Assembly: GCA_027307335.1 (NCBI GenBank)
Contig: DAHUXD010000060.1
Location: 62,001 to 126,000 of the forward strand
Reading direction: 5' to 3'
Length of the DNA stretch: 64,000 nt
DNA from: Acidobacteriota bacterium
GTDB lineage: Bacteria; Acidobacteriota; Thermoanaerobaculia; UBA5066; Gp7-AA6
Notes under the pieces: generated by a model
Database searches by the model: none
The model's input: only the letters and a program-made list of their open reading frames with translations
What the model was told of the DNA's origin: nothing
In this document: one piece after another, positions 47,059 to 52,752 of the stretch
How the letters are laid out: each line of letters starts with the position of its first letter
Position numbering within the stretch: position 1 is the stretch's first letter
Made by a program: the position numbers and the translations under genes

Positions 47059-50000
47059 TCAGCGCTGGATCCAGAGGTCCTCGTAAGGGATCGGCGCGTT
47101 CGACTGGCCGATCGTGGTCAGCCCGTGGACCTCGGGTCTCGCGAAGCAATAGACCTGGTCGTGGAAGAGGGGGAGAATCAGCGCGTCCCGCGCCAGCAGT
47201 TCCTCGGTCTGTCGGTAGATCGAGTGGCGCACGCGCGGGTCCGCCTCCCTGCGGCCCTGGTCGGCGAGCCGGTCGAGCTCGGGCGAGCTCAGGTAGTTCC
47301 GGAAGGCGCCCGCGGAGGAGTGCAGGCAGCCATACATGAAGGTGTCGGTGTCCGGATAGTCGCCGGTCCAGCGCCCCACCTCGATGTCGGCGTCGCCGGC
47401 CTCGGAGAGCTTCATGTACTCCGCCATCGTCCGGTTGGCGGGGCGCAGGCGGTAGCCGATTTCCTGAAAGGCCTCGACGAGCCCCTGGAAGAAACGGGCG
47501 AACTCGCCGAAGAACACCGGATGGACGGACGTCACGAGATCCACCGTCTCGCGCGAGACGGTCGCCTCGACCGAGCTGTCCGAGGCGGACGTCTCGCCGG
47601 AGAGGCGCGCGCCGGAGGCCGGCCCGGACGCGGAATAGCCGAGCAGCCCGGGCGGGATGAGGCCGTGCGCGGGGATCGCGAGGCGTCCGAGCGTGCGCCG
47701 CACGAGGCCGGCGGTGTTGAGCTCGCGCACGACGCCGCGCCGCGCCTCCGGGTCGCGCAGCGGGCCGCGCCGCGTGCTGAAGACCACGAAATACGTCGTC
47801 AGGCGCGGGCTCTCGCGGTAGCCCGAGGCGAACCGCGGATCGTGGCGGAAGTTCTCGGCGTCGACCGGCAGCAGGTCGCGCGCGATCGAGAGCCGGCCGG
47901 CGAGAAACTCCTCGCGGATTTCCTCGGGCGGGACGCCGAAGTGGAAGACGAGGCCCTCGTTGCGGGGCCGATCCGGCCGGCGGTAGAACGGATTGCGCTC
48001 GAGCTCGACCCGGCGGCCGGGCTCGAAGCTGACGACGCGGTAGGCGCCGGTCCCGATCGCTCCTTCCCTCGCGCTGCCGCCGATCGTGCGCGTGCCGTCG
48101 GGCAGGATCGCCGTCGCGGCGTACGAGATCATGGCGGGGAAGAACGGCACCGGGGTCGTGAGCTCGACGACGAACTCGGTGGGCGAGACGATCTGGAAAC
48201 CCGCGAGATCCGTGGCGGCGCCCTCGAGAATCGCGCGGGCGCCGCGGATGTCCGCGAGGACCCAGCGGCTCTCGCTCTCCTTGTTCTGGAGGAGCCGCTC
48301 CCAGGAATGCCGGACGTCGCGCGCGGTCAGGCGGCGCCCGTCGTGGAAGCGCACGCCCTGCTGGAGACGGATCCGGAAGCGCGCGCCGTCTTCCTCCATG
48401 CGCACCTCGGAGGCGAGCCACGGCACGATGCGGGTCCCCTCGAGGGCCCAGGTCAGGGTCTCGTAGATGCTCGGGATGACGTCGGCCTGCTCGATCGTCG
48501 ACGTCACCGACGGGTCGAGGCTGCGGACGCTCCCCTGGATGGGCACGTGCAGCACGCCGCCGCCGACCGCGCGCTCGGGGGCGGCCGCGGGGGCGGAGGC
48601 GGCCGCCGTCTTGCCGAGCTCGGCGTAGTTGACGTACGGCGCGGTCGAGTGGAGGGCGACGCCGCGCACGGATGGCCCGGCGATGCGGTAGTCGATGTCG
48701 TGGAAGAGCGGCACGAGGATGCCCGAGTCGAGCACCGCGTGCTCGATGCGGCGGTACAGCGCCTCCCGCGCGGCGGATCGCGGCTCGGTGCGCGCCTCCT
48801 CGAACGCCCGATCCATCTCGGGCGAGCAGAAGTACGCGCGCAGCCGGCCGTTGCCGGAGTCGAACAGGTTTCGCGTGAAGTTGTCCGGATCGTCGTAGTC
48901 CGCGATCCAGCGGCCGACCACGAGGTCGATGCCCGAGCTCGCGTTCCACGAGTCGAGGTACTGCGGCATGGCGGGCGTGACGATCTCCACCTCGACGCCG
49001 ACGTCCGCCCACAGGCGGAACAGCGCCTGCGTCAGGGCGGCGTACTGGTTCTGGAGGATCGGGTGGACCGCCGCGCGCAGGCGGATGGACCCGGTCACCC
49101 CGGCCGCGCGGATCTGCTCGAGGGCCTTCTCCCGGGTCAGATGCGGCTGGCGCCGGCCGGCGTCGTGGCCGAGGATTCCCGGCGGGATCAGGCCCGTCGC
49201 GGGCAGGGCGAAACGTCCGAGGGCTCCCCAGACGAAGTCCTGCGTGCGCGCGAGGCCGGCGAGCGCCGTGCGCAGCCCCTCGTTGCCTCCGGCGGGACTC
49301 TTCGTGTGGAAGAGCGCGAAGTACGTGTTCTTCTTGGGCGTCTCGACGAGCCCCGAGCGCAGGCGCGGGTCGCGCAGGAGCGTCTCGAGGTCCTGCGGCA
49401 GGAGGTCGCGCGCGAGATCGAGGCTCCCCGAGCGGATGCCGTCGGCGATCTGCGCGGGCGAGAGCGCGGCTCGGAATTCGATCCCGTCCAGGGGCGCGCC
49501 GGGCGTCCTCCAGTGGCGCGGATTGCGCTCGAGCACGGCGTGCTCCGGAGTGTGCGACACGATCCGGAAGGCGCCCGTCCCGACCGGCTCCCCGTTCGGG
49601 CCCGCGGCGGCGATCGAGGTGCGCCCATCCGTCAGGAGCGAGGGGAGGATCGGCACCGGCCGCGTCAGTCGGATGCGCAGCCGGTGCTCGGACGCCGCCT
49701 CGAGGCCCGCGACGTCGGGAGCGGAGCCGCCGAGGAACTCAGCGATGCCCGCCACGTCGGCGAAGGCCGCGGGCAGGACCTCCCGCGACAGTCGAATCGA
49801 TCGCTCGAGCGCCCCCTTGGCCGAGGCCGCCGTCAGCGGGGCCCCGTCGGAGAAGACGACCCCACGGCGCAACTCGAACGTCATCGCGAGGCCGCCCGGC
49901 TCCACGGTCCAGCGCTCGCAGAGGCTGCCGGCGAGATTCCCCTGGGGGTCCGCGGTGACGAGCGTCTCGAACGCGTTCGCGAGGACCTCGTGTTCCTCGG

Positions 50001-52752: not shown

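What the first reader, a model, noticed from the sequence alone, without database searches (positions are those of the whole stretch)
47059..52752. Cytoplasmic kinase-ATPase-TPR protein carrying two oligopeptide-binding-protein domains
One 1897-residue frame joins a complete Ser/Thr kinase (Lys45, HRD 135-137, DFG 159-161), a P-loop ATPase (334-341), TPR-like helices, and two full-length SBP_bac_5 domains (from about 892 and 1396). Solute-binding domains normally lie outside the membrane, but no signal peptide or membrane helix is visible here. The two SBP units differ enough to bind different ligands. Inference: a one-chain switch in which an intracellular peptide or metal-chelate ligand read by the tandem SBP modules gates ATPase or kinase activity. 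I cannot say from sequence alone whether this architecture has been described.
Basis: partly seen in the sequence, partly recalled or inferred. Interest (0 to 1): 0.78.

Follow-up and report, generated by a model that had tools for sequence, protein, structure and literature searches.

The report
STAND kinase with tandem peptide-binding domains
A conserved soil-bacterial (Acidobacteriota) signalling protein joins a Ser/Thr kinase to an apoptosome-like ATPase switch and, inside the cell, two domains of the kind that normally catch peptides outside it; this suggests a one-chain sensor of internal peptides, with the ligand still unproven.

Summary
The minus-strand frame 52752..47059 (1897 aa) encodes a complete Ser/Thr kinase, an AAA_16 ATPase, a TPR arm and two complete SBP_bac_5 folds, with no signal peptide or membrane helix. 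It is neither an artefact nor unique: about 29 proteins with the ATPase-TPR-SBP-SBP core occur patchily in Acidobacteriota (36-65% identity); one of them carries a DNA-binding domain instead of the kinase, and none was found in Pseudomonadota or Actinomycetota samples. The predicted structure of the middle region matches STAND switches (6mfv, Apaf-1, MalT, NLRs), so this is a PknK-like STAND kinase with a new sensor. The chassis is modular: some relatives have one SBP or none, and some swap the kinase for an OmpR-type DNA-binding domain. The two SBPs form separate, fully supported clades that arose from one old duplication. The Asp that holds the peptide amino group in OppA/DppA is kept in most members (24/27 SBP1 as D/E, 21/26 SBP2) and is absent from NikA, so a peptide-like ligand is favoured over a metal chelate. 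Ligand gating of the kinase remains inference. In passing: MCP chemoreceptors with a C-terminal, cytoplasmic SBP. I judge this a new variant of a known kind.

The parts
47059..52752 (-). Whole gene: kinase-STAND-TPR-SBP-SBP protein, 1897 aa, TTG start, stop at 47059-47061
51961..52707 (-). Ser/Thr protein kinase (residues 16-264; K45, HRD 135-137, DFG 159-161, SPEQ 185-188)
50701..51843 (-). STAND nucleotide-binding oligomerisation region (about residues 304-684): AAA_16 304-492, Walker A 334-341, Walker B LILENLH 462-468, sensor-1 region GSYRQ 493-497, GNPFF 559-563, winged-helix part; boundaries approximate
50107..50694 (-). TPR-like helical arm (about residues 687-882)
48607..50070 (-). SBP_bac_5 domain 1 (residues 895-1382), complete two-lobed fold
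48898..48900 (-). Asp1285, at the position of the peptide alpha-amino-binding Asp of OppA (D419)
48574..48606 (-). Short low-confidence linker between the two SBPs (residues 1383-1393)
47062..48573 (-). SBP_bac_5 domain 2 (residues 1394-1897), complete two-lobed fold
47359..47361 (-). Asp1798, at the position of the peptide alpha-amino-binding Asp of OppA (D419)

Best explanation
This is a cytoplasmic STAND-type signalling kinase. The N-terminal Hanks-type kinase is the effector, the AAA_16/winged-helix region is the nucleotide switch, the TPR arm couples the parts, and the tandem SBP_bac_5 domains are the inducer sensor. Proposed working: in the ADP-bound resting state the arm and sensor hold the switch closed. 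When an intracellular peptide-like ligand closes the SBP lobes, the arm changes partner, the switch opens, exchanges ADP for ATP and multimerises, which brings kinase domains together for trans-activation and phosphorylation of a target. Shown here: all domains present and complete (structures by prediction), key catalytic motifs conserved, cytoplasmic location by absence of any export or membrane segment, family-wide conservation, effector and sensor swapping on one chassis, and retention of the peptide-amino-binding Asp. Inferred: ligand binding, its identity, the gating, multimerisation and the kinase target.
For: Domain content and no TM or signal. The middle region folds (mean pLDDT 83) as NBD-helical-winged helix-TPR, and Foldseek's best matches are a STAND-TPR protein (6mfv), Apaf-1, MalT 8bob_C, CED-4 and plant NLRs. 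Kinase and Walker A motifs are conserved in the aligned members. Tandem members are 36-65% identical across the SBPs, spread over several classes of the phylum. Effector swap on the same core: L098 is Trans_reg_C-AAA_16-TPR-SBP-SBP. Sensor swap: L124 and L125 carry one SBP; L126, L127, L128 and L131 carry none. S1, S2 and S1+S2 are each clades with support 100 (similar), so two distinct sensors have been kept since one early duplication. Asp at the OppA D419 position: S1 24/27 D or E, S2 21/26 D; NikA has P, SgrR N. The host genome has a PTR2 peptide symporter and a secreted SBP next to ABC permeases, so imported peptide in the cytosol is plausible. Precedents: MalT and PknK as STAND proteins (PMC4381067); SgrR/DsvR as cytoplasmic HTH-SBP_bac_5 regulators (PMC13060122).
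Against: No ligand, activity or gating was tested. The amino-binding Asp is missing in a few members (S, T, A, V or G) and alone does not fix specificity; SgrR, a cytoplasmic SBP regulator, lacks it. Of the four copies in the two sister genomes, two are frameshifted and one has a deletion plus frame change inside the SBP region, which could mean relaxed selection or assembly error. There is no conserved gene neighbourhood pointing to a substrate or ligand. The relative arrangement of the SBPs is not fixed by the model (pTM 0.52).
Confidence: 0.62

Rival explanations
1. The SBPs are sensors, but of a non-peptide cytosolic metabolite (sugar phosphate, amino acid such as glutamate, metal chelate or cell-wall fragment), as suggested for SgrR-type regulators.
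For: SgrR responds to sugar-phosphate stress and is reported to bind glutamate (PMC13060122). SBP_bac_5 members bind varied ligands (PDB list: NikA, sialic acid, opines). The best fold neighbours of SBP2 include murein-tripeptide binders MppA and DppE, and the same window holds an MR/MLE-superfamily enolase-like enzyme.
Against: The peptide amino-binding Asp is kept in most members, unlike in SgrR and NikA.
Confidence: 0.25
2. The SBP folds are docking or scaffold domains (for example gripping a partner protein), not ligand sensors; kinase control comes from the STAND switch alone.
For: SBP identity between members is lower than that of the kinase or ATPase. Relatives exist without any SBP (L126, L127, L128, L131). 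Three frame-broken copies lie in sister genomes.
Against: Both folds are modelled complete, the D419-equivalent is retained, and two distinct SBP clades are kept together for the depth of the phylum.
Confidence: 0.12
3. Misassembly, frameshift fusion or chance frame: kinase and SBP are separate genes, with the SBPs exported.
For: High-GC window with many long spurious frames.
Against: The same full-length order occurs in many independent genomes; no signal peptide or TM between the kinase and SBP parts.
Confidence: 0.01

Closest known systems
PknK of Mycobacterium tuberculosis (STAND Ser/Thr kinase)
   Same: N-terminal Ser/Thr kinase on a STAND protein; soluble (PMC4381067; PMC3140968)
   Different: As far as I know PknK has no SBP domains (own knowledge; not tested against its sequence here); this family adds two SBP_bac_5 domains at the C-terminus
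MalT (STAND transcription factor)
   Same: STAND switch with TPR-type helical part and a C-terminal inducer sensor; small-molecule inducer maltotriose (PMC4381067); MalT 8bob_C among the top fold matches
   Different: MalT's effector is a DNA-binding domain and its sensor is TPR-like, not an SBP; here the effector is a kinase (relative L098 has a DNA-binding effector)
SgrR / DsvR (HTH-SBP_bac_5 regulators)
   Same: Cytoplasmic SBP_bac_5 used as a sensor of a one-chain regulator (PMC13060122); SgrR groups near the cytoplasmic SBPs in trees, but on a long branch
   Different: One SBP, HTH effector, no kinase, no STAND switch; N at the D419 position
GlnH-GlnX-PknG of Actinobacteria
   Same: A solute-binding protein controls a Ser/Thr kinase (PMC6069109)
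   Different: GlnH is a lipoprotein outside the membrane acting through GlnX; here everything is in one cytoplasmic chain
TOMM kinase/cyclase fusion (TIGR03903)
   Same: Kinase joined to further domains; weak overall similarity (268 bits)
   Different: Below the family cut-off of 705.75; no cyclase hit here

Membership tests
STAND NTPases | Nucleotide-binding domain with Walker A/B | tested here: met
   AAA_16 over cut-off; GEPGIGKT and LILENLH, conserved in the family
STAND NTPases | NBD-helical-winged-helix (NOD) followed by arm or superhelical repeats | tested here: met
   AF2 model, mean pLDDT 83; top Foldseek hits 6mfv, Apaf-1, MalT, CED-4 (E 4.7e-13 to 1e-7). Whole-length TM is low (about 0.3), as domain arrangement differs
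STAND NTPases | Effector domain at one end, sensor at the other | tested here: met
   Kinase N-terminal, SBPs C-terminal; effector and sensor swaps. That the SBPs act as sensor is inference
STAND NTPases | Inducer-dependent nucleotide exchange and multimerisation | not testable with these tools
   needs biochemistry
Hanks-type Ser/Thr kinases | Pkinase profile and catalytic Lys, HRD, DFG | tested here: met
   178 bits against cut-off 31.7; K45, HRD, DFG conserved in the kinase-bearing members
SBP_bac_5 (PF00496) | Profile over gathering score and two-lobed fold | tested here: met
   171.2 and 168.8 bits separately against 32.4; Z 37.6 and 35.5
Transport solute-binding proteins | Secretion signal or lipobox | tested here: not met
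   No hydrophobic segment before or between domains; so not a transport SBP
NikA-type nickel binders | Over the curated nickel-binder cut-off | tested here: not met
   TIGR02294 90 bits against 393; NF045468 126 against 600; Asp, not Pro, at the D419 column
Peptide-binding SBP_bac_5 (OppA/DppA type) | Asp that binds the peptide alpha-amino group | tested here: met
   D1285 and D1798; kept in 24/27 SBP1 (D/E) and 21/26 SBP2
Peptide-binding SBP_bac_5 (OppA/DppA type) | Measured peptide binding | not testable with these tools
   needs purified protein
TOMM kinase/cyclase (TIGR03903) | Score above curated cut-off | tested here: not met
   268.4 against 705.75 bits
Anti-phage defence kinases (PADLOC) | Match beyond the generic kinase domain | tested here: inconclusive
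   The best 25 of 33 hits shown all lie on residues 5-326, the kinase and its immediate C-terminal edge

The most novel reading that the evidence does not exclude
A phylum-level class of STAND kinases in Acidobacteriota uses two captured peptide-binding modules as an intracellular two-input peptide receptor, each binding a different peptide, to fire a Ser/Thr kinase. Together with the MCP-SBP chemoreceptors it would mark a lineage of cytoplasmic SBP_bac_5 sensors that read the internal peptide pool (nutrient, signal or cell-wall peptides).
Probability: 0.4. Interest if true: 0.72.

Novelty: new variant of a known kind. Interest (0 to 1): 0.56.

Why it matters
What activates bacterial Ser/Thr kinases is called an outstanding question (abstract of PMC6069109), and few bacterial STAND proteins have a known inducer. 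Here the putative sensor is a well-understood ligand-binding fold that can be expressed alone and screened, so both questions become directly testable. The swaps of effector (kinase or DNA-binding) and sensor (no, one or two SBPs) on one chassis also give natural controls.

Tried and rejected
Misassembly or chance frame: rejected by recurrence. Membrane or exported SBPs: no TM or signal. The few windows above 1.6 in relatives lie inside folded SBP, ATPase or kinase domains, or within the first about 30 residues of stop-to-stop frames ahead of the kinase. Conserved operon or neighbour that would name a ligand or target: none recurs. Defence system: the PADLOC matches shown are to the kinase part only. 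Plasmid-borne relatives: none at E 1e-80. Other phyla: 0 of 249 in the sampled phylum of a Rhizobium genome; 1 of 246 in that of Microlunatus, and that one a 552-aa frame, not a fusion; other phyla could not be reached. Literature: searches on SBP_bac_5 with kinase, STAND, SgrR, chemotaxis and Acidobacteria kinases found no description of this architecture, but the library lacks most subscription papers. PMC9602780 states in general that SBP Pfam domains also serve as sensor domains of cytosolic signalling proteins. L087 first looked like another fusion; its SBP is preceded by an ordinary lipoprotein signal, so it is a secreted SBP with upstream frame noise.

Full report
Check of the observation. 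The open frame runs on the minus strand from a TTG at 52752 to a stop at 47059-47061. Pfam finds Pkinase 16-264, AAA_16 304-492 and two SBP_bac_5 stretches; in the genome search the two SBPs score 168.8 and 171.2 bits separately against a cut-off of 32.4. No hydropathy peak reaches a membrane value; the highest, 1.56, is inside the kinase, and nothing hydrophobic lies between 850 and 900. The 32 in-frame codons upstream of the TTG are Arg-rich. The kinase and ATPase need ATP, so a chain without membrane segments puts the SBPs in the cytoplasm (inference from established biology).

Not an artefact. The window lies in a 4.37-Mb genome whose family mates include an acidobacterial 'gp7 AA6' assembly (matching contig lengths). 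All three genomes of the family carry the protein, one of them three times. In 297 genomes of the phylum, 11 hold strong matches over SBP1 and SBP2, or SBP1 alone at a contig end, in frames of 1398-2317 aa. A profile of the ATPase-TPR part finds 15 of 148 genomes of the class at E below 1e-100. By hand I collected about 29 distinct proteins with the ATPase-TPR-SBP-SBP core, a few cut by contig ends; one of them (L098) has a DNA-binding domain in place of the kinase. Sampled genomes of two other phyla gave none. The genus-to-phylum spread is patchy, which fits loss or lateral transfer.

Anatomy of the middle. AlphaFold2 with 20 family members gives a confident model of residues 286-894 (mean pLDDT 83). 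Foldseek's best solved structures are a STAND protein with TPR (6mfv), Apaf-1 and the apoptosome, MalT, CED-4 and plant NLRs. With Walker A GEPGIGKT, Walker B LILENLH, a sensor-1-like YR and GNPFF, this is a STAND switch. STAND proteins are built as effector, nucleotide switch, arm and sensor, and Ser/Thr kinases such as PknK belong to them (PMC4381067). The protein follows that plan, with SBPs in the sensor place.

Anatomy of the sensor. The tandem SBP model (mean pLDDT 86) holds two complete folds: residues 895-1382 (best Z 37.6, 459 aligned, 2.4 A, 5u4o) and 1394-1897 (best Z 35.5, 484 aligned, 3.5 A, MppA) joined by a short low-confidence linker. The first is modelled nearer to unliganded, open structures and the second nearer to closed, liganded ones; this is a model property, not evidence of binding. 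The two are 31% identical to each other, while SBP1s share 41% and SBP2s 44% on average across the family. In the tree each type is a clade with support 100, and together they are a clade with support 100 (repeated with more members). So one old duplication gave two sensors that have stayed distinct.

Ligand. Alignment to E. coli OppA, DppA, MppA, NikA and SgrR places Asp1285 and Asp1798 at OppA Asp419, which binds the peptide alpha-amino group (role from established OppA/DppA structures, own knowledge). It is D or E in 24 of 27 SBP1 and D in 21 of 26 SBP2; DppA and MppA have D, NikA has P, SgrR N, and the genome's two secreted SBPs V. This favours peptide or another free-amine ligand over a metal chelate, but does not prove it. 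The genome encodes a PTR2 peptide symporter and a secreted SBP beside ABC permeases, so peptides probably reach the cytosol.

Modularity. On the same ATPase-TPR-SBP-SBP core, L098 carries an OmpR-type DNA-binding domain instead of the kinase, L091 two kinases, and L124 and L125 one SBP of the second type. More distant relatives of the chassis have no SBP (L126, L127, L128, L131) or are DNA-binding STAND-TPR proteins (L129, L130). Swaps at both ends around a constant switch are what a sensor-switch-output device predicts.

Mechanism proposed. By analogy to MalT, ligand closure of the SBPs draws the arm away from the closed switch, ATP replaces ADP, the protein multimerises, and clustered kinases trans-activate. 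Shown: parts, predicted folds, motifs, location, conservation, swaps. Inferred: ligand, gating, multimerisation, target. No conserved neighbour gene points to the target; in this window an OmpR-type DNA-binding/TPR gene ends 97 bases upstream on the same strand, but I did not find it next to other copies.

Weak points. Of the four copies in the two sister genomes, two are frameshifted and one has a deletion plus frame change within the SBPs; one break lies at a short direct repeat. This may be assembly error or decay. Literature and phylum coverage are incomplete.

Novelty. Each module is known, and SBP domains as cytosolic sensors are known in principle (PMC9602780; SgrR/DsvR, PMC13060122). 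I found no description of SBPs on a STAND kinase. I class it as a new variant of a known kind: a PknK-like STAND kinase with a tandem SBP sensor.

Noticed in passing
L072:7618-11022, L073:6841-10392, L074:2819-6160(-), L077, L078, L083, L085 and others: A second class of SBP fusion in Acidobacteriota: chemoreceptors with (usually) one or two N-terminal membrane helices, then MCPsignal, then a complete SBP_bac_5 at the C-terminus with no membrane helix between, so the SBP should be cytoplasmic. All 16 aligned keep the OppA D419-type Asp.
   Followed up: partly
L098:10492-15819: Effector swap: Trans_reg_C-AAA_16-TPR-SBP-SBP, a DNA-binding version of the same protein.
   Followed up: yes
L091:2551-8973(-): Version with two kinase domains in front of the same STAND-TPR-SBP-SBP core.
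   Followed up: no
L096:6394-13341(-): 445-residue N-terminal frame extension without a Pfam match ahead of the kinase; may be frame noise.
   Followed up: no
L051 near 10045, L052 near 8715, L054 near 3208: Family copies with a frame break inside the SBP region; L052 also lacks about 125 residues, and the L054 break is at a short direct repeat.
   Followed up: partly
window 52849-55410 (-): Upstream same-strand gene with an OmpR-type DNA-binding domain and TPRs, ending 97 bases before this gene; possible operon partner or kinase target, but not seen next to other copies.
   Followed up: partly
window 40181-42550 (-): BlaR1-type M56 peptidase followed by TPRs.
   Followed up: no
window 44349-47042 (+): 897-aa protein with a DUF4388 domain, converging on the 3' end of the kinase gene; one other locus (L056) has a similar neighbour.
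   Followed up: no
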